IMG/VR virus record: IMGVR_UViG_3300006805_000153
Span: 1 to 24,682 of that record
DNA length: 24,682 bases
Reading direction: 5' to 3' (one strand)
DNA from: a virus
The position numbers and the translations under genes are program-made. The notes under the pieces are model-generated. The model was not told the DNA's origin. It did not search any database and saw nothing but the letters and a program-made list of their open reading frames with translations. Of this stretch, positions 2,823-24,187 are shown piece by piece (the stretch's first letter is position 1; every line of letters begins with the position of its first letter).

Positions 2823-5045
2823 ATGGCGGACGATGCCGATTACATGGCCGTGAGCCGTGAGGAAGACGAGCAGAACCCGAGCAAGCTTGAGGCGGACGAT
2901 CTGTTCGTCACGATGCGTGGCTGGTTCTCGACGGACAAGTCCAAGTCGGACGAATGGAGGGAAGAGGCCAGGACGTCTTTCAATTTCGTTGCCTCGGATC
3001 AGTGGGACCCGAATACTGAAAAGCAGATGGCGAGCGAGAAACGTCCGGCCATCACGTTCAACCGCGAACTTTCGATCATCAAGGCCGTGGCTGGTGTTGA
3101 GATCAACACGCGGCAGGACATCATCTATCTTCCGAGAGGGATGGAAGAAGGAGATGTCGTTGCGAATGAGAGTCTGTCAGCAGCTTCAGAATGGATGGCA
3201 GACGGCTGCAATGCGCAGCAGCAGGAAAGCCGCGCGTTCCAGGACATGCTTGTCTGTGGCATCGGCTCGACGGAATCCCGGATTGATTACGAGCTTCACC
3301 CGGACGGGAAGTACATCGAGCAGGCCATAAGTCCGCTGGAAATGTACTGGGACCACGCCGCACGGGAGCAGAACCTTTCTGACCGCAGACGCACTTGGCG
3401 TGCGCGGAAGATGCCATTGTCCGATGCGAAGGCGCTGTTCCCTGGAGAACAAGACCGCGACCTAAACTGTAGCTGGGTCAGTGATGTCGGTTCGACTGTT
3501 CCTGTGCCGGTCGAAGAGCGTAGGCTCAAGCAAGGGTCGATGACCAGCAGTGACACGAAGTCGACCGTTGTCATCCTGCAAATCCAGTGGTGGGAGCGAG
3601 AGAAATATCACCGCGCCGTCAATCCAGCGACGGGCGAGATGGAGGAACACGACGATAAAAGCCTGAAGGCGCTCAAGTCTCAGGTTGATGCAACCAACAA
3701 GGCGATGCAGACCGAAGCGCAGCAGTCGGGCGCGCCGTTCGAGCCGATGGAGGTTCAGAGCGTCACACAATATCGCCGCGTCTACAAGCAGGCATTCATC
3801 GGAGACAAAATTCTCAAGGCGGGTCCGTGCCCAAGAGCAGACGGGTTTACGCTGAACTTCATCACGGGAGAGCGCCACGAGACGAAGAATTCCTGGTTTG
3901 GGCTGGAGAAGCTTCTTCGTCCTGCGCAGCAGATGGCCAACAAGTGGCTGTCTCAGGCGACGCATATCATCAACACCACGGCGAAGGGCGGCATTCTCGC
4001 GGAGGAAGACGCCTTCGTAGACCAGCGCCAAGCCGAAGCAACCTATGCCCAGCCCGACGCGATCACATGGGTAAAAAAGAAGGCGATCAGCGAAGGCAAG
4101 ATCATGCAGAAGCCGGGCGTCGGCATGGCCGCGCCTTACGTGCAGCTTCTGCAACTCGCCCTCGATGCGATGCCCCAGGTCACGGGCATCAACATGGAAC
4201 TGCTGGGCATGCGGGATGTCAACCAGCCCGGCGTGTTGGAAGCGCATCGCAAGCAAGCCGCCATGACCATCCTTGCGACGCTGTTCGATAGTTTGACCGC
4301 ATACCGGATTGAGATTGGCCGCACGCGTCTGTTCTTCATTCAGAACTATCTCGCTGACGGCCGGTTGATCCGCATTCTAGGGCCGGATGGCTACAAGGCG
4401 ATCAGCCTCGTGAAGGACCAAGCCGTTGGTGAATATGATGTGATCGTTTCGGAAGCGCCGACGAGCCCGAACCAGAAGGAACAGACCTGGGCCGCGTTAC
4501 AGACTGTGCTTCCCGCGTTCCAAGGTTTGATGACGCCGGATGTCGCTGTGATGTTGTTGGAGTACGTGCCCGGCCTGCCGCAGAAACTGATCGATAGCCT
4601 TAAGAAATTGCTCGAACAGCAACAGCAATCTCCGGAAGCCGCGCAGCAAAAGCAGATCGCGCAGGACGCGGAACTGACGAAGATCGACCGGGACAAGGCG
4701 GCATCGGAGAAAGACAGGGCCGTCGCGAAGAAGACGCTTGCAGAGACTGTGTTGGGTTTCGCATCGGTCGCCAGCGACAATCACTTGAAGGAAGCGCAGG
4801 CCGAGCGGGAACAATCGCTTGCGGTTCATACGAAGGTGAGGGCCGTCAAGGATTTAACGCTCACGGCGGTCCCGGAAGATCCCCTGTTCTCGAACTCCGA
4901 CCTTCCGAAACTTCCCCAACTTCCGCAAATCCCCATGCGCCGCCAGCCGGATGCAAACCCGCTCGCAGCGCCGACGATCGACGACACCCCAGTCCAGCCG
5001 CCCCGAGGTCCCTCGATTGCGGGGATCAATGGCGCTGGCATTTAA
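2823..5045 (+). CDS. Portal protein, P22-like
   Basis: This 740-residue protein would form the dodecameric ring at the unique capsid vertex through which DNA enters and leaves. The length is close to that of P22 gp1 (725). The N-terminal part shows the P22-like portal signature: FVASDQWDP at about 55, RPAITFNRELSIIKAVAGVE about 20 residues on, then an NTRQDI segment and later WRARKMPLSDAKALFPG. The middle has the clip/stem region with the helix VTGINMELLGMRD. From about residue 590 to 680 there is a Gln-rich, strongly charged coiled coil (LLEQQQQSPEAAQQKQ onward), like the barrel of P22 portals. The tail is Pro-rich. A perfect A_AAA_AAG heptamer lies in frame at 4073-4079. Scaffold and capsid genes follow, as expected. 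Confidence 0.92.
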   Translation: MADDADYMAVSREEDEQNPSKLEADDLFVTMRGWFSTDKSKSDEWREEARTSFNFVASDQWDPNTEKQMASEKRPAITFNRELSIIKAVAGVEINTRQDIIYLPRGMEEGDVVANESLSAASEWMADGCNAQQQESRAFQDMLVCGIGSTESRIDYELHPDGKYIEQAISPLEMYWDHAAREQNLSDRRRTWRARKMPLSDAKALFPGEQDRDLNCSWVSDVGSTVPVPVEERRLKQGSMTSSDTKSTVVILQIQWWEREKYHRAVNPATGEMEEHDDKSLKALKSQVDATNKAMQTEAQQSGAPFEPMEVQSVTQYRRVYKQAFIGDKILKAGPCPRADGFTLNFITGERHETKNSWFGLEKLLRPAQQMANKWLSQATHIINTTAKGGILAEEDAFVDQRQAEATYAQPDAITWVKKKAISEGKIMQKPGVGMAAPYVQLLQLALDAMPQVTGINMELLGMRDVNQPGVLEAHRKQAAMTILATLFDSLTAYRIEIGRTRLFFIQNYLADGRLIRILGPDGYKAISLVKDQAVGEYDVIVSEAPTSPNQKEQTWAALQTVLPAFQGLMTPDVAVMLLEYVPGLPQKLIDSLKKLLEQQQQSPEAAQQKQIAQDAELTKIDRDKAASEKDRAVAKKTLAETVLGFASVASDNHLKEAQAEREQSLAVHTKVRAVKDLTLTAVPEDPLFSNSDLPKLPQLPQIPMRRQPDANPLAAPTIDDTPVQPPRGPSIAGINGAGI

Positions 5046-12877: not shown

Positions 12878-13983
12878 GTAAGGGCGGCGGGAGTAAATCC
12901 CAAAAGCAGGTCACGACGTCCGAACCGTGGGCAGCAGCACAACCTTATCTCAAGGACTACCTTGCGAAGGTCGGCAGCCTTTCTGGGTCAACGGACATTA
13001 CGCCGGCGCAAACGGATGCGTTCGCACAACTTGAGACGAACGCAAAAGCCGGAAATCCGTTCTCAAGTTCACTGACGACAGCCGCAAACAGCGCTCTGAA
13101 TTACGACAATTCCGATCAGGTCGGCTTGTTAAAAGACGCCTACGGCACGCTGCAGAGCAATCTCGGAGACTATGCTTCCGGGAAATACCTCGATGTCGGA
13201 AACAATCCTCAGATTCAGGCGGCATTGAAGGTCGCGGCAGACGATGCGCAGAGCCGTATCAACCAGATGTTCGCTGGCTCTGGGCGTTCTTTCTCAGGCG
13301 CGAACCAGGGTGCCGTGGCACGTGGTGTTACGTCTGCTACGGCACCCATTCTGTTGAACGAGTTCAATCAGCAGCAGCAGAACCAGCTTGCGGCCGCAAA
13401 TGCACTATTCGGAGGGGCTGGTTCAACGGCCTCTGGAACCTCTGCCCTAGATACGACGAAGGCAAACATCAACGCGGCAGGTGTTCCGTTGTCTCAGTCA
13501 GCAATGGATGCAGCGAACTACACACCGAACCAGCTTCTCAACATCGAACAGCAGAAAACGGAACTTCCGTTTCAGAACCTGTCTCTGCTGAGCCAGCTTC
13601 TCCTTCCGGCCGCAGGGCTTGGAGGAACGTCGACAGGGAAGGGCTCCGGAAGCGACAGCCAGTACGGCATCACGTCTTCCGGTGTCGGGTCTGTCATCGG
13701 CGCGCTCGGCTCCTTGTTCGCCCTCTCGGATGAAAACGCGAAAGACAATATCGAGCCCGTTGGTCTCTTGGCCGATGGCCAGCCGATCTACCGCTACAAC
13801 TACAAAGACGATCCAACCGGCGAAGTTCATATCGGCCTGATTGCGCAGGATGTTGAAGGTGCGACTCCGGAAGCGGTTGCTCCGATGGGCAACGGATTTA
13901 AGGGCGTGGATTACGACGCTGCTACGAGAAACGCGGCGGCAATGGTTCGTGATGCGGTTCAGAAGAAGGGCAAAGCAGCATGA
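12874..13983 (+). CDS. DNA-ejection protein with C-terminal S74 self-cleaving domain
   Basis: This 369-residue protein overlaps its neighbours by ATGA at both ends. Residues 1-280 are Ala/Gln/Ser/Asn-rich and helical (WAAAQPYLKDYLAKVGSLSG, NQQQQNQLAAANALFGGAG), with low-complexity segments, as in internal virion proteins that enter the cell with the DNA. Residues 284-369 are a Peptidase S74 (intramolecular chaperone) domain: LSDENAKDNIEPVG with the Ser285/Lys290 dyad at the usual spacing, then GQPIYRYNYKDD, HIGLIAQDVE, and FKGVDYDAATRNAAAM. Such domains guide folding of trimeric fibres and cut themselves off just before the Ser. Here cleavage would release about 85 residues and leave a 284-residue protein. 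S74 domains are usually on fibres, so the context is of interest. Confidence 0.75.
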   Translation: MSKGGGSKSQKQVTTSEPWAAAQPYLKDYLAKVGSLSGSTDITPAQTDAFAQLETNAKAGNPFSSSLTTAANSALNYDNSDQVGLLKDAYGTLQSNLGDYASGKYLDVGNNPQIQAALKVAADDAQSRINQMFAGSGRSFSGANQGAVARGVTSATAPILLNEFNQQQQNQLAAANALFGGAGSTASGTSALDTTKANINAAGVPLSQSAMDAANYTPNQLLNIEQQKTELPFQNLSLLSQLLLPAAGLGGTSTGKGSGSDSQYGITSSGVGSVIGALGSLFALSDENAKDNIEPVGLLADGQPIYRYNYKDDPTGEVHIGLIAQDVEGATPEAVAPMGNGFKGVDYDAATRNAAAMVRDAVQKKGKAA

Positions 13984-15359
13984 ACATCACCGACCTTCTG
14001 ACGAGCCTTGCGAATGGCAAGGGGCTGAACATCACACCGGGCGTTCCGGATACGAACCTTCAGCAGGTGGTGTCACGCTTTGCGCAGGGGAATGGCGCGC
14101 CTCAGATGCCGTTCGGCATGGCCGTGCCTCAGATGCCTGACCCGGCACAGGCGGCAAAGATGTTCGCCGGTCTCAGCCCGTCAGCCGATGTTCCAACGAA
14201 CCTTCCTGGCAGTCTCGCAGTTCCGAACGATGCGCAGACCGGGGGCTATATGGGTGTCGGCGCAGGGCTGCAGGGGAATATCCCGAAGACACCGCTTCCG
14301 CCGCCTGAAACCGAACTGACGTCGCCGCAGAACACGTCAGGTATGACGACTGGATCGATTGCGCAGCCTTCTGCCCCGGCGAGCACGTCAACACCAGATT
14401 TCAGCCACTCGTTTGCCGACACGCTGACGAACGTCGGCAATGCGCTTCAGGGGAAGGCCACAGCTAATCTCGGTGAAGACACGCTCAGCAAGAACAAGAC
14501 CTACCAGGCATTGATCGCCAAGGGACTAGACCCGGCGAGCGCGGAAGCGGCTGTGCGTAACCCGACAATTCTGCAAGCGGTTCTTCCTGCTGTGTTCAAC
14601 CCGACCAAGAATCTCACCAACGATCAGCGGGAATATGAAACGGCGCAGGCTCAGGGGTTCAAAGGAACGTTCCTCGATTACCTCACGACGGTAAAGCGAG
14701 CTGGCTCTCCGCAGTTTAGCGTCACCACTGATATGAAAGCAGAGAACGCGGAATCAAAAGGTAGAGGGGAAGGTCTAGCCAAGCGCCTGAACTCAATCGC
14801 CGAAGACGGCGTTGAAGCAGGGAAGGACATGCAGACGCTGCAGCGGCTATCTCAACTAACCAGCAACGTCGATCCCGGCACGAAGACGGCGCTGCTTGAG
14901 CAGGTTCGAGATCTGACCGGCATTGCGCTCGATCCTAACACCGACAACGTGCAGGCATTCAAGGCGGCCGCCAGCTACCTCGCGCCCCGCATGCGGGTGC
15001 CGGGGTCCGGTGCCTCATCCGACCGGGACGTGTCGCTCTTCATGAAAGCGCTGCCGTCGCTTCTTGGCACTCCAGAGGGCAATCAGACGGTCATCGAAAC
15101 TCTTGGTGGGATGGCTCAACAGCGCCAGCGAAGAGCGGACATTGCCGCGCAGTGGCAGCGCGGGGAGATCGGCGCGGCAGACGCGGACCGGGCAATGGCC
15201 GCTCTTCCTGACCCGTTTGCTGAATTCAAATCCCGGACAAAAGGTATGCAGCAGCCGCAAGCAGGCGATCTGCCGGTCATGACGCCGGAGCAGGCGGCTA
15301 GGGCTCCATCTGGCACTAGGTTCAAGGACGTCAACGGTAAGGTGAGGGTCAAGCAATGA
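13980..15359 (+). CDS. Probable DNA-ejection (internal virion) protein
   Basis: This 459-residue protein has an ATGA overlap with the preceding gene and another with the next. The first 150 residues are Pro/Gln/Gly/Met-rich low complexity (QMPFGMAVPQMPDPAQ, TPLPPPETELTSPQ). The middle is helical with NKTYQALIAKGLDPASAEAA and REYETAQAQGFKGTFLDYLT. The C-terminal half has long amphipathic helices (KRLNSIAEDGVEAGKDMQTL). It ends in APSGTRFKDVNGKVRVKQ, a short PGTRF---DG-V-V-type tail that I know from other podovirus internal proteins. No enzyme motif is visible. It probably forms part of the channel or is injected with the DNA, together with the genes on either side. The function is inferred from composition, size and order. 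Confidence 0.65.
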   Translation: MNITDLLTSLANGKGLNITPGVPDTNLQQVVSRFAQGNGAPQMPFGMAVPQMPDPAQAAKMFAGLSPSADVPTNLPGSLAVPNDAQTGGYMGVGAGLQGNIPKTPLPPPETELTSPQNTSGMTTGSIAQPSAPASTSTPDFSHSFADTLTNVGNALQGKATANLGEDTLSKNKTYQALIAKGLDPASAEAAVRNPTILQAVLPAVFNPTKNLTNDQREYETAQAQGFKGTFLDYLTTVKRAGSPQFSVTTDMKAENAESKGRGEGLAKRLNSIAEDGVEAGKDMQTLQRLSQLTSNVDPGTKTALLEQVRDLTGIALDPNTDNVQAFKAAASYLAPRMRVPGSGASSDRDVSLFMKALPSLLGTPEGNQTVIETLGGMAQQRQRRADIAAQWQRGEIGAADADRAMAALPDPFAEFKSRTKGMQQPQAGDLPVMTPEQAARAPSGTRFKDVNGKVRVKQ

Positions 15360-17557
15360 CCGCGAAAGACCCCTACGCCGGAATTGCAGCCCTTGTCCCG
15401 GACGCAGACAAAGACAAAGACCCTTATGCCGGGATCGCGAGCCTTGCGCCGTCCGGTCCGGTTGCGACGGATTTCTCAAAACTGACGTCGCCCAAAGACG
15501 TGCAAGCCGAGATGGACAAGATCCCGGATGCGGATGGTAAGCGCGCTTTCTTGAACGAATGGGCACGACAGAGAGTCGGCAGCGAAGGCGTCCACAACGT
15601 CGCGACGCGGCTGTTCGCAAAGGGGACTCCTGTCGGACCTTGGCTTGATGAAATTGGCTCAGGGCTGAACTCTGCGATCCATACCATCTCTGGCGGCCGA
15701 GCCGGAATGCCCTACGATCAGGCGCACGCTTTGGAAGAGGCGAGAGACGCAGAGACGGAGCGCATTTCTGCGGAGCAGCCGAAGGTAGGGCATCTACCGC
15801 TGATTGGAGATATCACGACTGGCTCTTTGATTAAGGGGGCCGGCGGCGTTGCGAGTGCGGCAGCCGCTGCCCCGCTCGCTCCGCTGCGCGTGATGCAGGG
15901 AGAGGCGGTGGTCCCGAGTATCATCAACTACGGCGCAACAGGGGCTGCGACGGGGGCTGTGGCAGGTGCTGGCGAAGGTGAAGGACTGGACCGGCTGAAG
16001 AATGGAGGCATTGGAGCCGGAGCCGGTCTCTTGATTGGCGGCGGCGCGCCTGTTGCCGGTCGCGCCATCGCCGCCCCTTATCGGGCTGTCCGCGATCGGC
16101 TCCGGCCACTGCCGGAGGAATTGAACGGCTTCTCTCGACCTGAAATCGACAGGGTGTCACGTGCGGTCCGTGATGACCAGATCCCGCAAAACTTTGATCA
16201 GCTCGCCCAGGAGCTTGGTCCTGAAGGAATGCTTGCAGACATGGGTCCCAACGTGCGGGCACAAACCTCCGCATTAGCCAATCAGCCTGGCGCAGCCCAG
16301 TTTCGCATTCGCGATGCCTTGGCGGATCGTTCGGAAGGAGCCTCCGATCGCATTCGCGCTGATCTTGATCAAGCGTTCGGCCCTCAGCAAAACGTCATAG
16401 CTCTCGAACGGCAGAGAACGAACGCAGCCAACATGGCGGCACGGCCGCACTACGAAGCGTTTGAGAATGCCGAAATTCCGATGACCGAGGAGTTACACGG
16501 CGCCTTGCAGGAAGCGCGGCACTGGGGAGCCGTTCAGGAAGGGATCAAGATGGCGCGGGGGCAAAGCATCATGCCGCGCGCCATCAACCGTCTAGAGCCG
16601 GACGCGATGACACCAATGACCGGCCTTCCGAACCAAGTAACCGATCTCGTGCCGTCTGGACGGGAACTCGATTATGTGAAGAGGGCGCTCGATCGCAAAG
16701 CTAATGAGGCTTTCGAAAAGGGAGATACGCATCTAGGAGACATCATCAACCAAACGGCGCGGCGGCTAACAACGGAAATCGATCGCATTTTGAGCCCGGA
16801 TAACCCGGCCGGAAGCGTTTACGCCAGAGCACGCGGCGCGGCTGCGGAAGGCAAGCAGTTCAGCGAAGGCTTGCGTGATGGCTCAGGCGTTTTTTCTCGC
16901 CCGAAGACCCACCACCCAGATCAGGTGGAAGATGATCTTTATGACGCCTCGGTGCCGTACAGCGACGGGTATTTCGCCGGCGCTCGCGCCGACATCGGCA
17001 ACATGATGGACGAATCGGCAACCCAGTTTGGAAGCACGGGCGACCGCGCGGCGCGGAAAGGATTGTGGAGTCGGAATTCTGAGCGGCGCATTCAGCAGTT
17101 AACCGACGTCCCAAACGCCCAACGCGTTCTTAATCGACGAGACGCGGAAAGCACGTTTGCTGAGACGCAGAATACTGCGTTGGCGAACTCGGCCACAGCC
17201 GCTCGGCTTCAAGCGCAGAAAGAGTTTCCAAATCCGATCATGAACAATGGGGAAGGACCGCGCGTCACGGATGTGACGTTGACGGGCATTCCGCTGAAAA
17301 TTCTTCAGAAGGTCGTCGGCGCAACGACGCGAGAGTCGACCAATGAATCCTTGACGCGCATGGCGGACAACGCCGCGCGCATTCTCACGGCGACGGGGGC
17401 TCAGCGCGATCAGTTCTTCCGGGGCCTCGCCAAAAATCTTGAACGTCGTGGGGCGACGGCAGAGCAGGGGGCACAGATCGCGGGAGCGGTGGAGGCGTTG
17501 ATGCTGGGGTCGGTTCCAAGCGCAGTCGGCGCCGCCACTTCTGACGGAGGGCGTTGA
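15356..17557 (+). CDS. Large DNA-ejection (internal virion) protein
   Basis: At 733 residues this is one of the largest proteins here and the last of three consecutive internal-type proteins. The N terminus has a short repeat DPYAGIA at residues 5-11 and 22-28 separated by a charged linker. Residues 157-240 are Gly/Ala-rich and weakly hydrophobic (GGVASAAAAAPLAPL, ATGAATGAVAGAG, GAGAGLLIGGGAP), which suggests membrane insertion. The rest is long, charged helix (NVIALERQRTNAANMAARPH, DYVKRALDRKANEAFEKGD). No lytic motif is visible. This build is common in podovirus ejection proteins that cross the envelope with the DNA. Its last 173 bases are overlapped on the other strand by the membrane-protein gene. 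Confidence 0.68.
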   Translation: MTAKDPYAGIAALVPDADKDKDPYAGIASLAPSGPVATDFSKLTSPKDVQAEMDKIPDADGKRAFLNEWARQRVGSEGVHNVATRLFAKGTPVGPWLDEIGSGLNSAIHTISGGRAGMPYDQAHALEEARDAETERISAEQPKVGHLPLIGDITTGSLIKGAGGVASAAAAAPLAPLRVMQGEAVVPSIINYGATGAATGAVAGAGEGEGLDRLKNGGIGAGAGLLIGGGAPVAGRAIAAPYRAVRDRLRPLPEELNGFSRPEIDRVSRAVRDDQIPQNFDQLAQELGPEGMLADMGPNVRAQTSALANQPGAAQFRIRDALADRSEGASDRIRADLDQAFGPQQNVIALERQRTNAANMAARPHYEAFENAEIPMTEELHGALQEARHWGAVQEGIKMARGQSIMPRAINRLEPDAMTPMTGLPNQVTDLVPSGRELDYVKRALDRKANEAFEKGDTHLGDIINQTARRLTTEIDRILSPDNPAGSVYARARGAAAEGKQFSEGLRDGSGVFSRPKTHHPDQVEDDLYDASVPYSDGYFAGARADIGNMMDESATQFGSTGDRAARKGLWSRNSERRIQQLTDVPNAQRVLNRRDAESTFAETQNTALANSATAARLQAQKEFPNPIMNNGEGPRVTDVTLTGIPLKILQKVVGATTRESTNESLTRMADNAARILTATGAQRDQFFRGLAKNLERRGATAEQGAQIAGAVEALMLGSVPSAVGAATSDGGR

Positions 17558-17756
17558 AGGACACCACGGTTTCGGCTCGGCCTTCGGGCGTATCGATGAA
17601 CCAGCCGAGCACGATCGTTCCGATGAACAGCACAGGGAGAAGATACCAGTAGCCCGCGTCCACCATGTCGTACAGCGCATACTTGTACATGAGCAGAACG
17701 AGACCCGTCACGACGATGGTGATGATCTGAAGCACGAAGAGTATGGCGACCCGCAT
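17385..17756 (-). CDS. Two-helix membrane protein on the minus strand
   Basis: This is the only credible minus-strand gene: 123 residues from the ATG whose complement lies at 17754-17756. Residues 1-23 (MRVAILFVLQIITIVVTGLV) and about 36-55 (GYWYLLPVLFIGTIVLGWFI) are strong membrane helices. A positively charged segment (LRQKWRRRLRLEP) follows and then a Pro-rich tail. The helices lie in the 249-base stretch that has no + strand gene, while the tail overlaps the 3' end of the large ejection gene. The upstream site (CGAGAAACTTG) is weak. By analogy with small antisense or moron genes it could act in superinfection exclusion, lysis control or envelope change; no family is recognised. A random open frame is possible, but the helix quality argues against it. 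Confidence 0.55.
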   Translation of the reverse strand: MRVAILFVLQIITIVVTGLVLLMYKYALYDMVDAGYWYLLPVLFIGTIVLGWFIDTPEGRAETVVSFNALRQKWRRRLRLEPTPASTPPPLPRSVPPALPSPHDVQDFWRGPGRTDRAEPPSP

Positions 17757-17806
17757 CAAGTTTCTCGCGTTTGTGCAGTGCGTATTCAAAAACAACGAGC
17801 ACTGGA

Positions 17807-18571
17807 ATGGCACAGACGCCAGCTTCGATCCGCTACAACAATCCTGGGGCGCAATGGCCAGGACAAAGCTCGAAGAAATTCGGCGCTGACGGCTACGCAA
17901 CGATTGGCGGTGGCAATCAGATTGCGATTTTCTCCGATCCCGTCAATGGCGGAGCGGCGCAATTTGACCTGTTATCCCGGAATTATGCCGGGCTCCCCCT
18001 GACCGAGGCCATCCGAAAGTGGTCGGGTGGCAACGCCTCAGATGCCTATGTCGCGAATATCGCAAAGCGAACCGGGCTCAGTCCCGATGCGGTGCTTTCA
18101 CCAGAGCTTCTAGCCGATCCGGCTCGAGCCATCCCGCTCGCAAAGGCGATGGCCGCCCATGAGGCAGGCCAAGACTATCCAATGACAGATGAACAATGGG
18201 GCAGCGCATTCCAGCGCGCTAGCGGAGGGGGAAGCATGCCGGTTCAACCAGGGTTCGGAATGTTGGCGGGCGTACCGGGTACGACCATCGCAAATCCAAC
18301 CTCAGGCGGTCCGCAAATGGCTCTTCCGGCCGGTCTCTTGGCGGGCATGGATATGTCAGGCCAAGCCCCACAACAGCCGCCGGTGGCCGCGCCAGGGGCG
18401 GGAGCCGCGCCTTCAATTCTTCAGTCCTTGGCAGAGGCCGATAAAGGCGCGGTCGCGGCAATGCCGAAGATGGCGGACTTCCAATTCTCGGCGCCACAGC
18501 GGGCGCCAGTTGATCTCAGCCGCTTGGCTCAGATCGCACAAAGCAGACAGAAGCTCGGGAGCCAAGCATGA
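17807..18571 (+). CDS. Lysozyme/transglycosylase-like structural protein
   Basis: This 254-residue protein starts at ATG 17807; 12 more in-frame residues back to a TTG are unlikely. Residues 8-140 follow a pattern seen in many phage tail and internal proteins taken to be peptidoglycan-active: IRYNNPGAQWPG, then FGADGYATIGGGNQIAIF, then GGAAQFDLLSRNYAGLPLTEAIRKWSGGN, then YPMTDEQWGSAFQRA. A nearby AMAAHEAG at residues 114-121 supplies a possible catalytic Glu (E119), but this is not proven. Residues 145-254 are Pro/Gln/Ala-rich linker and coil. It may open the cell wall for DNA passage. The ribosome site is poor. It lies at the start of the fibre block, divergent from the minus-strand membrane gene. 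Confidence 0.62.
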   Translation: MAQTPASIRYNNPGAQWPGQSSKKFGADGYATIGGGNQIAIFSDPVNGGAAQFDLLSRNYAGLPLTEAIRKWSGGNASDAYVANIAKRTGLSPDAVLSPELLADPARAIPLAKAMAAHEAGQDYPMTDEQWGSAFQRASGGGSMPVQPGFGMLAGVPGTTIANPTSGGPQMALPAGLLAGMDMSGQAPQQPPVAAPGAGAAPSILQSLAEADKGAVAAMPKMADFQFSAPQRAPVDLSRLAQIAQSRQKLGSQA

Positions 18572-22493: not shown

Positions 22494-23519
22494 GTGACCA
22501 TCAGGCTCACGCGAGACGATCTCGTCCACATTGCTTCAAGGCCAAAGAACGCGGCTCAAGCAAAGGTCTGGGATGCTTATGTCGCTTCTCTCATGTCGGC
22601 AGAAGCAACAGCCTTGTTCGATCGATATCAGATCAACACGCCGCGCCGGATGCAGCATCTTCTCGCGACGATGGTGTGCGAAACGAACCTTTCGATCATC
22701 TGGGAGTCTGGAGCATACTCGGCGAGCCGGATCACGCAGGTGTTCGGAGCCGGTCGGCATTCCTCAGCAGTCACGCCAGAAGAAGCGCAGAAGATTGCGT
22801 CACTCGATGTCAATCCAGACGGTAGCGGCCCTCGTTGCGAGGCCTTGTTTGAGCGGGTCTACGGCTACAAGACAAAGATCGGCCGCGGTATGGGCAACAC
22901 CGCACCGGGCGATGGTTGGAAGCATCGTGGCCTGGGACTCAATCAGCAAACAGGCAAGGCATCCCAGCAACGCGCTGCGGCAAAGGTCGGATGCTCTCTC
23001 GAAGACCTGCAGAAGCCAATCAACCTCATCCACATGGCCTTGACTGAGTGGGAGGAAAAGAATTGCAACAGGTACGCGGACAATGACGACGCAGTTTCGA
23101 TCCGCAAGCTCATCAACGGGGGTTCGCTCAAGGTTTCGATTTCCAAGATCAACGGGCTTCCTCAGGCACAGGCGGCGCTTCGTCTGGCGAAGAACGTCAT
23201 CACCGACGCCGATTTTTCCGATACCGCAGTCGCGGATGCTGCCGATCCCGTTCCAGCGAACGAGAACAAGCCCGTCTCTCTCATGGCATCAACCGAGATG
23301 CAGGCTGCAGGCATCGTCGGAACGGGCGGTGCGGTCCAGATGCAGCAGTCCCTTGCGAACGCAGCCGCGCAGACGGCTGCCGGAGGGCGGTTCTCTCTCG
23401 GATCGTTCCTCATGCATCTGATGGCTGATCCGTTGTTCTGGCTGACAGTCGTGACGATCGCCGGAGCGGTCTACATGGCCATCAAGCGGCGCAAGCGCTT
23501 CCACATCTTCGGAGTTTGA
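22494..23519 (+). CDS. GH19-type endolysin with C-terminal membrane helix
   Basis: This 341-residue enzyme would break the glycan strands of peptidoglycan at the end of infection. Residues 48-165 fit the GH19 lysozyme/chitinase pattern in phages: MQHLLATMVCETNLSIIWES (candidate catalytic E63 and E71), SASRITQVFG, LFERVYG, and GRGMGNTAPGDGWKHRGLG followed by NQQTGKASQ. Residues 200-240 contain VSIRKLINGG, which is common in this family. The last part differs from the usual soluble lysin: after an Ala/Met/Gln-rich linker, residues 314-330 (LFWLTVVTIAGAVYMAI) are a clear membrane helix followed by KRRKRFHIFGV. The enzyme is thus probably membrane-held, or carries its own holin-like part. It uses a GTG start with AAGGAG. 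Confidence 0.82.
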   Translation: MTIRLTRDDLVHIASRPKNAAQAKVWDAYVASLMSAEATALFDRYQINTPRRMQHLLATMVCETNLSIIWESGAYSASRITQVFGAGRHSSAVTPEEAQKIASLDVNPDGSGPRCEALFERVYGYKTKIGRGMGNTAPGDGWKHRGLGLNQQTGKASQQRAAAKVGCSLEDLQKPINLIHMALTEWEEKNCNRYADNDDAVSIRKLINGGSLKVSISKINGLPQAQAALRLAKNVITDADFSDTAVADAADPVPANENKPVSLMASTEMQAAGIVGTGGAVQMQQSLANAAAQTAAGGRFSLGSFLMHLMADPLFWLTVVTIAGAVYMAIKRRKRFHIFGV

Positions 23520-23522
23520 CCC

Positions 23523-23891
23523 ATGGCGCTATTCACTGGACTGGCCCGCTGGGTCTCGCTCGACGCGATCAAATCAATTGCCATCGGGATTGGCTGCGCC
23601 ATTCTGCTTGGCCTCGCAGTTTCGATCTATGCCGACATCAAAACGTCGGGAGGTGCGCAAGCCCGTCTCCAATGCGCTCAGGCGGTCATAGACGGCAACG
23701 AGCAAGCGGCAAAGGAAATCGACGCTCTCAACGCAAAGGCTGTCCAGGCAGCAAATGCGGAGCGGGAAAAGGCAAAGGCAGAGGTTGCGCAAACGGCACA
23801 GCGGATCGTGACGCTCGAAGCTTCCCTTCGTGCCCTGAGTGATGATCCGATCTGCTACCCGCAATCCATTTCTCGGAGCCTCAGACAATGA
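23523..23891 (+). CDS. Rz-like i-spanin (inner-membrane spanin)
   Basis: This 122-residue protein starts three bases after the endolysin stop. Residues 17-37 (KSIAIGIGCAILLGLAVSIY) are an N-terminal membrane helix, and residues 45-105 a coiled coil rich in Ala, Glu, Lys and Gln (AKAVQAANAEREKAKAEVAQ), the usual form of an inner-membrane spanin. It ends in DDPICYPQSISRSLRQ. It would link through the periplasm to an outer-membrane partner and join the membranes after wall breakdown. The next gene overlaps it by ATGA, where an o-spanin is expected. A holin is less likely because there is only one helix. Confidence 0.72.
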   Translation: MALFTGLARWVSLDAIKSIAIGIGCAILLGLAVSIYADIKTSGGAQARLQCAQAVIDGNEQAAKEIDALNAKAVQAANAEREKAKAEVAQTAQRIVTLEASLRALSDDPICYPQSISRSLRQ

Positions 23892-24187
23892 AATGGCACA
23901 TCATCGCCGTCCTACTGCCGATCCCGTTTTTGATGGGAAACAAAGGCGGATGCTGGTCGGAGCCACCCGATCCCATGATCTCGACCAAGCTCGCGATGAT
24001 CACGCCACCGCATGAGTGTCTGTCGTCTGATCCGGCATGGTCCAACCCTCCCGATGCGGACGAGCCTCGTTCTGAAACGGCGCGTCGCGAGAGAAAGAAC
24101 AAGGACAGCTTCAACGCCATTCGTTCTGATCGTTCCGTGTGCCGGGCTGGGCTCAAAGCCATCCAGAAGCAAGCCAGCAAGGACTAG
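23888..24187 (+). CDS. Small exported protein, possible outer spanin
   Basis: This 99-residue protein has its ATG 23888 overlapping the i-spanin stop. The N-terminal MKWHIIAVLLPIPFLMG is a short signal-like hydrophobic segment, and Cys22 follows in NKGGCW. This is not a proper lipobox (the -3 residue is Lys), so a lipoprotein cannot be claimed. The remainder is Pro-rich in the middle (SSDPAWSNPPDADEP) and basic at the end (FNAIRSDRSVCRAGLKAI). Location right after the i-spanin suggests an outer-membrane spanin partner (Rz1 type), but the residues do not fully agree. It may be another periplasmic lysis helper. Confidence 0.45.
   Translation: MKWHIIAVLLPIPFLMGNKGGCWSEPPDPMISTKLAMITPPHECLSSDPAWSNPPDADEPRSETARRERKNKDSFNAIRSDRSVCRAGLKAIQKQASKD

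What the first reader, a model, noticed from the sequence alone, without database searches (positions are those of the whole stretch)
17385..17756. Lone antisense two-helix membrane gene inside the ejection-lysin junction
Apart from this gene, all convincing genes are on the + strand. Its two membrane helices lie in a + strand gap of 249 bases, and its Pro-rich tail runs antisense through the last 173 bases of the large ejection gene. That placement suggests a separately expressed gene, such as a superinfection exclusion or envelope-altering moron expressed from a prophage, and possibly an antisense regulator of the ejection gene end. The function is inference.
Basis: partly seen in the sequence, partly recalled or inferred. 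Interest (0 to 1): 0.55.

Follow-up and report, generated by a model that had tools for sequence, protein, structure and literature searches.

The report
Antisense membrane gene beside ejection gene
A small membrane-protein gene reads backwards against the end of a phage's DNA-injection gene; related phages usually carry such a gene there, and Salmonella phage P22 keeps a superinfection-exclusion gene in that place, so it probably helps the carrier's host keep rival phages out.

Summary
A 123-codon minus-strand ORF (17756-17385) puts two membrane helices in the 249-b + strand gap between a P22-type ejection gene and a lysin-like gene. Its gap part has gene-like codon usage, above all 516 antisense windows of the + genes; the tail antisense to the ejection gene looks passive. 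The junction is a conserved slot: among 68 non-redundant loci with an ejection-gene relative, 55 have a membrane-helix minus ORF at that gene's end, against 31 of 278 other + gene ends. Over half belong to one unnamed hairpin family under purifying selection. Searching with that small protein alone, all 87 readable loci (of 89) converge on an ejection-family gene. P22 keeps sieA, whose inner-membrane protein blocks DNA injection, in the same slot and orientation (PMC10883804). The window's own protein has no detectable homolog, so it is a positional analogue, not a proven member of either family. Best reading: prophage-expressed, SieA-like exclusion of DNA injection; function and expression are inferred. 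Antisense regulation is unsupported.

The parts
17385..17756 (-). 123-aa two-helix membrane protein gene, ATG 17756, stop 17387-17385
17682..17750 (-). membrane helix 1 (residues 3-25)
   Evidence: Kyte-Doolittle; helix 2-34 in the low-confidence single-sequence model
17592..17651 (-). membrane helix 2 (residues 36-55)
   Evidence: helix 39-55 in model
17523..17588 (-). basic segment after helix 2 (residues 57-78, contains RQKWRRRLRL), predicted helix, probably cytoplasmic
   Evidence: sequence; (low confidence)
17385..17557 (-). Pro/Arg-rich tail antisense to the ejection gene's end, probably passive read-through
   Evidence: coding score -0.149; phase statistics
17763..17766 (-). weak Shine-Dalgarno-like GAGA, 6 nt before the ATG
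   Evidence: sequence
17558..17806 (+). 249-b gap on the + strand that holds the minus gene's helices
15356..17557 (+). large ejection-type gene (phrog_5880, itself of unknown function in PHROGs; gp16-like by position in a P22-type late operon)
17807..18571 (+). lysin-like gene (phrog_873 match, annotated endolysin)
13980..15359 (+). gene before the ejection gene, gp20-like by position only (no PHROG match)
2823..5045 (+). P22-type portal gene that fixes the phage type
   Evidence: PF16510 E=6e-100
22494..24187 (+). + strand lysis cassette: endolysin 22494-23519, Rz-like 23523-23891, Rz1-like 23888-24187
   Evidence: phrog_181; sequences and helices; the Rz/Rz1 labels are inference by eye

Best explanation
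The ORF is a real gene for an inner-membrane protein with two helices (N-in, C-in by the positive-inside rule, judged by eye), carried as a separate opposite-strand unit at the end of the ejection gene. Shown: ORF, helices, coding signal, true + strand gap, conserved slot in relatives. Inferred: it is expressed from the prophage while the + strand late operon is silent, sits in the host's inner membrane, and blocks DNA entry by incoming related podophages by jamming the ejection-protein conduit whose gene it abuts, as SieA does in P22. The tail over the ejection gene is probably a passive extension.
For: Gene-like codon usage of the gap part, above all 516 antisense windows. Slot: 55 of 68 loci against 31 of 278 other gene ends (KD>1.6), 66 of 68 against 75 of 278 (KD>1.2); first, narrower filter 54 of 68. 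Reverse search with the small protein: 87 of 87 readable loci (of 89) converge on an ejection-family gene. Slot proteins are under purifying selection: median dN/dS 0.14 over 58 pairs. The slot protein co-varies with the ejection protein (rho 0.36-0.69 along it), not with the next gene (0.11-0.14). RHph_I3_18 has the same build: two helices in the gap, tail running 152 b antisense into the ejection gene. P22 sieA: same slot and strand, 22 b after gene 16; [quoted passage not shown] The hairpin family occurs in bacterial chromosomes, for example Rhizobium johnstonii 3841.
Against: No homolog of the window's own protein: viral contigs, phages at E<=10, one plasmid hit at E=10, Pfam, PHROGs, PADLOC none, NCBIfam only far below cut-off; it scores no better than shuffles against the family model. 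RHph_I3_18's matching ORF has only a weak coding score (0.057 over 43 codons; its annotated + genes 0.08-0.32). L131, a relative with a 30% match over 211 residues of the ejection protein, has no gap and only a 51-aa helix ORF antisense inside the next + gene, so the slot is not kept everywhere. No sigma-70 consensus or terminator. No integrase among the 20 ORFs scanned, so a temperate life is not shown for this phage. Exclusion is untested for any member of the alphaproteobacterial family.
Confidence: 0.48

Rival explanations
1. A real membrane-protein gene and moron with another envelope function (receptor masking, plasmid or other phage exclusion, host fitness), not aimed at the ejection conduit.
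For: Lipoprotein-like genes often lie beside the slot gene on the same strand (crude pattern, 20 of 87 loci, some rows chance; RHph_I3_18's P0001 weakly like EexN, 18.3 bits against a cut-off of 33, and Cor, E=0.11). The libraries searched give no function.
Against: The strict tie to the ejection gene (87 of 87) and co-variation with it rather than with the next gene point to the ejection machinery, though physical linkage and differences between groups could cause part of this.
Confidence: 0.26
2. A two-helix holin or antiholin of the lysis system placed on the other strand.
For: Size and hairpin with a basic tail fit class II holins (recalled); two PHROG holin profiles each weakly match one of 32 family members, perhaps the same one (E 0.041 and 0.053).
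Against: Opposite strand to the lysis cassette at 22494-24187; RHph_N2, RHph_Y25 and Mae-JY35 have separate + strand two-helix proteins next to their lysozymes and also carry the slot gene.
Confidence: 0.08
3. An antisense transcript that regulates the end of the ejection gene; the protein is incidental.
For: Convergent overlap of 173 b. In P22 a sieA deletion is said to ensure robust tailspike synthesis after induction (PMC10883804, passage seen), so opposite-strand transcription there may matter for late genes.
Against: Slot-protein dN/dS of 0.14 in the part outside the overlap and conserved protein motifs; 83 of 87 relatives overlap by only 4-57 b and 4 not at all.
Confidence: 0.07
4. Chance ORF in a non-coding gap.
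For: No homolog of this exact protein; antisense ORFs with a helix occur at 31 of 278 (KD>1.6) or 75 of 278 (KD>1.2) control gene ends.
Against: Top coding score of 71 minus ORFs and 0 of 516 antisense windows as high; conserved slot.
Confidence: 0.11

Closest known systems
SieA of Salmonella phage P22
   Same: Same slot (directly after gene 16), same opposite strand, membrane protein (PMC10883804)
   Different: P22 SieA is 162-164 aa with three helices by TMHMM (paper; my hydropathy script marks four segments); not among the 8 best BLASTP rows for the window protein; the FxRYPxEAxxFNK motif is absent by inspection
Unnamed IDHDPNEP...TGNKVPDSWRR family of alphaproteobacterial P22-like prophages (defined here: A4, A5)
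   Same: Slot, strand, small membrane protein, basic C-terminal segment with a tryptophan
   Different: Window protein lacks the motifs and scores 1.3 bits, below shuffles of itself (up to 6.8)
Unannotated two-helix minus ORF of Rhizobium phage RHph_I3_18 (L037:9358-9675)
   Same: Two helices in the gap and a tail running antisense over the ejection gene's end, 152 b
   Different: No demonstrable sequence homology; weak coding score; a lipoprotein-like gene lies beside it

Membership tests
SieA (P22) superinfection exclusion | Gene directly after the gp16-like ejection gene, opposite strand | tested here: met
   window 17557/17756; P22 13313/13336-13830
SieA (P22) superinfection exclusion | Sequence similarity to SieA or its FxRYPxEAxxFNK motif | tested here: not met
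   SieA not among the 8 best BLASTP rows shown for the window protein; motif absent by inspection
SieA (P22) superinfection exclusion | Three transmembrane helices | tested here: not met
   two helices; counts depend on the method
SieA (P22) superinfection exclusion | Inner-membrane location and block of DNA injection | not testable with these tools
   needs fractionation and plating assays
IDHDPNEP/TGNKVP slot family | Sequence match to the family model above shuffles | tested here: not met
   1.3 bits against shuffles up to 6.8; best BLASTP 28.6% over 63 aa, E=0.007 in a set of 60, without composition correction
IDHDPNEP/TGNKVP slot family | Convergent with an ejection-family gene, at least one membrane helix | tested here: met
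Class II holin | Two-helix hairpin with basic tail (recalled definition) | tested here: met
   (prediction only)
Class II holin | Part of the lysis cassette, same strand as the endolysin (recalled definition) | tested here: not met
   opposite strand, 4.7 kb from the endolysin at 22494

The most novel reading that the evidence does not exclude
Temperate P22-like podophages of Alphaproteobacteria carry, as a near-universal rule, a cognate membrane protein written backwards over the end of their own ejection gene: a conduit-and-immunity pair inherited as one module, with seemingly unrelated membrane proteins recruited repeatedly into the slot (the IDHDPNEP family, the IDLxP group, the L118-like group, RHph_I3_18, this window, and SieA in enterics). 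The membrane protein would act as the lock that matches its own phage's DNA conduit.
Probability: 0.35. Interest if true: 0.75.

Novelty: new variant of a known kind. Interest (0 to 1): 0.6.

Why it matters
[quoted passage not shown] A large set of unnamed small membrane proteins tied to the ejection gene would extend that mechanism to another bacterial class and give natural partner pairs for asking what part of the conduit is recognised. It also shows where annotation misses genes: the two-helix ORFs of RHph_I3_18 and pCB2047-C are not annotated.

Tried and rejected
Homologs of the 123-aa protein: viral contigs, 14 and 20 handled records, phages, plasmids, Pfam, PHROGs, NCBIfam, PADLOC: nothing usable. 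The one match (G017, E=0.0012, 12.9 bits) is a chance match in a Pro-rich stretch of a late-strand ORF. Close relatives by portal (L016, 99%; L018, 80%) end before the junction. The lysin relatives L002-L015 and L041 showed no such junction. Rfam: no match (25). Promoter and terminator scan of 17300-18100: nothing (24). Homology of the window protein to the family: rejected against shuffles (67). Fold search of the family hairpin model against BFVD: no match with E<=0.001; the window's own model was not searched. L128 and L130, two portal relatives, could not be resolved at the junction.

Mended on checking: one search held one gene out of frame and is replaced. One search's filter edge (-160) missed the window; widens it. 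Paracoccus phage KLEP18-1 was dropped as an 'empty slot' control: the protein at that place does not match the ejection models. L131 has no gap, but a 51-aa helix ORF antisense inside its next + gene passes my own filter. The short slot proteins match the family model only weakly and the IDLxP ones not at all, so I no longer count them as one family. For these reasons confidence went from 0.50 to 0.48, and two rivals rose by 0.01.

Literature searches. No listed title or abstract opening describes such a family; six terms were searched in PMC10783043, with no mention of superinfection, antisense, opposite strand, moron or ejection. [quoted passage not shown] Subscription papers are not covered.

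Full report
What is there. The minus ORF 17756-17385 (123 aa) is as described. Two hydrophobic helices (residues 3-25, 36-55) lie in the + strand gap 17558-17806; a basic segment (RQKWRRRLRL) and a Pro/Arg-rich tail follow, the last 173 b antisense to the ejection gene. The + gene's end is real, because its C-terminus aligns to the end of phrog_5880. The phage is P22-like by portal (PF16510, E=6e-100), with further head and ejection PHROG matches. The window is a 24,682-b IMG/VR virus record. The name 'ejection gene' rests on position in a P22-type operon; phrog_5880 is of unknown function in PHROGs.

Is it a gene? The phage's own codon usage, trained on 15 + strand genes, gives the 66 gap codons 0.169; left-out windows of those genes average 0.149 (n=172), none of 516 antisense windows reaches 0.169, and the ORF ranks first of 71 minus ORFs of 60 aa or more by best 60-codon score. 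The tail scores -0.149. That antisense phase stays open for 57 codons in 646 of 4793 overlapping windows and is Arg/Ser/Pro-rich by nature, so the tail needs no function.

The slot. Two named phages gave the lead: RHph_I3_18 and Mae-JY35 have minus genes right after their ejection genes, and P22 has sieA there. A scan with the ejection alignment A2 returned the best 80 of 99 viral loci; 79 had a readable stop. With the window and seven named phages, 84 loci had 500 b or more after the stop, reduced to 68 non-redundant ones at 90% identity. A membrane-helix minus ORF sits at the junction in 54 of 68 against 31 of 278 other + gene ends in the same loci. With the filter widened by 20 b to include the window: 55 of 68 against 31 of 278 (KD>1.6), or 66 of 68 against 75 of 278 (KD>1.2); for two helices 15 of 68 against 6 of 278, or 49 of 68 against 22 of 278. 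At KD>1.2 only L038 and L125 fail; L038 (RHph_Y1_10) has a doubtful 72-aa ORF, and L125 has a motif-bearing ORF seen by eye.

What fills it. Of the 68, 54 have an IDHDP- or IDLxP-like N-terminus by pattern, 6 more by eye (L039, L058, L080, L104, L119, L125), and 7 carry other small membrane proteins (window, L037, L045, L046, L118, L122, L124). These are not all one family. A model of the 26 members with a TGNKVP-type end gives 59-103 bits for 13 further ones, clearly the same family; 11 shorter proteins (50-70 aa, one helix in the examples looked at) share the N-terminal motif but score only 6.7-17.2 bits; the 4 IDLxP proteins score 0.9-5.7, within the range of shuffles (shuffles up to 6.8). 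Mae-JY35 scores 102 bits. So 39 of the 54 pattern members, plus Mae-JY35 by score and L080, L104 and L119 by motif, make one family. Of the 54, 37 show two helix segments and 17 one at KD>1.2.

The family. In 15 aligned members I, H, E, W, G, W, TGN, P and W are invariant. Pairs of similar slot proteins give a median dN/dS of 0.14 over 58 pairs (6 more had saturated dS), measured only outside the overlap; the pairs are not independent and include the short type. AlphaFold2 on 32 aligned members gives a confident hairpin (mean pLDDT 91-95 by ten-residue block over residues 21-60). Searched on its own, the small protein found 10 loci in bacterial genomes and the best 79 in viral contigs (capped at 80 of 84). 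In 87 of these 89 it had a readable ORF, and in all 87 that ORF converges on one of the ejection family, overlapping it by 4-57 b in 83 and abutting it in 4. Many viral loci are the same contigs as; the 10 genome loci come from another collection. Of the 79, 46 carry IMG numbers not of the 3300 type; that such numbers mean isolate genomes is recalled. No Pfam, PHROG, NCBIfam or PADLOC family names the representatives scanned.

Coupling. Across 51 loci the slot protein's similarity matrix follows the ejection protein's C-terminal 160 aa (rho 0.79), its N-terminus (0.68) and middle (0.46), the upstream gene less (0.36) and the downstream gene hardly (0.11). With the overlap zone removed and 53 loci, rho along the ejection protein is 0.36-0.69, highest 25-105 residues from the C-terminus (0.69) and 425-505 from it (0.67); it is 0.11-0.14 for the downstream gene in 51 loci. 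Slot and ejection gene travel as one module. Physical linkage, and differences between the groups above, could produce part of this; the downstream and upstream genes were picked by position and may not be orthologous; and the signal is not specific to the C-terminus.

Mechanism. [quoted passage not shown] escape needs changes in gp16 and gp20; [quoted passage not shown] passages of others). Slot, strand and membrane nature match here. The step from slot to function is inference. The window's protein is not shown to be homologous either to SieA or to the new family, so it is filed as an analogue, not a member.

Against the reading. RHph_I3_18's ORF, the closest in build, has only a weak coding score (0.057 over 43 codons, tail -0.134; its genes 0.08-0.32), though it is the best of the six frames there. 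L131, the relative with a 30% match over 211 residues of the ejection protein, goes straight to a + strand gene that looks like a lysin by eye, without a gap; a 51-aa helix ORF antisense inside that gene passes my filter and is probably a shadow. That is one locus, so I do not claim that gene and gap always come and go together.

Limits. No close relative covers the junction, so selection on the window's own ORF cannot be measured; no promoter was recognised; helix calls are hydropathy-based; the window's model is single-sequence and weak (mean pLDDT 67); the lipoprotein count (20 of 87) is from a crude pattern and includes chance rows.

Noticed in passing
L037:9639-9929; L050, L059, L076, L091, L148, L150, L157 and others: A second same-strand gene, often lipoprotein-like, lies just upstream of the slot gene in many loci (20 of 87 by a crude lipobox pattern, some rows chance); RHph_I3_18's weakly resembles EexN entry-exclusion lipoproteins (below cut-off). 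The pair could act at both membranes.
   Followed up: partly
L039 (PP438426, Microcystis phage Mae-JY35): Deposited with a cyanobacterial host, but among the phage records its ejection protein matches only Rhizobium and Sulfitobacter phages besides itself and it carries the slot family; the true host may be an associated alphaproteobacterium.
   Followed up: no
L143 (JAHREI010000013, labelled Bacillus subtilis SK6B4): Carries the slot family, while the other 9 genome loci are Rhizobiales-type genomes by title; possibly contaminating sequence in that assembly.
   Followed up: no
L045:6306-6536 (-) and L037:9358-9675 (-): Two-helix ORFs in the slot left unannotated in the records of Sulfitobacter phage pCB2047-C and Rhizobium phage RHph_I3_18.
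   Followed up: partly
window 23523-23891 and 23888-24187: Overlapping Rz/Rz1-like pair by eye: N-terminal helix and charged rod-like remainder, then a small protein with a lipobox-like start.
   Followed up: no
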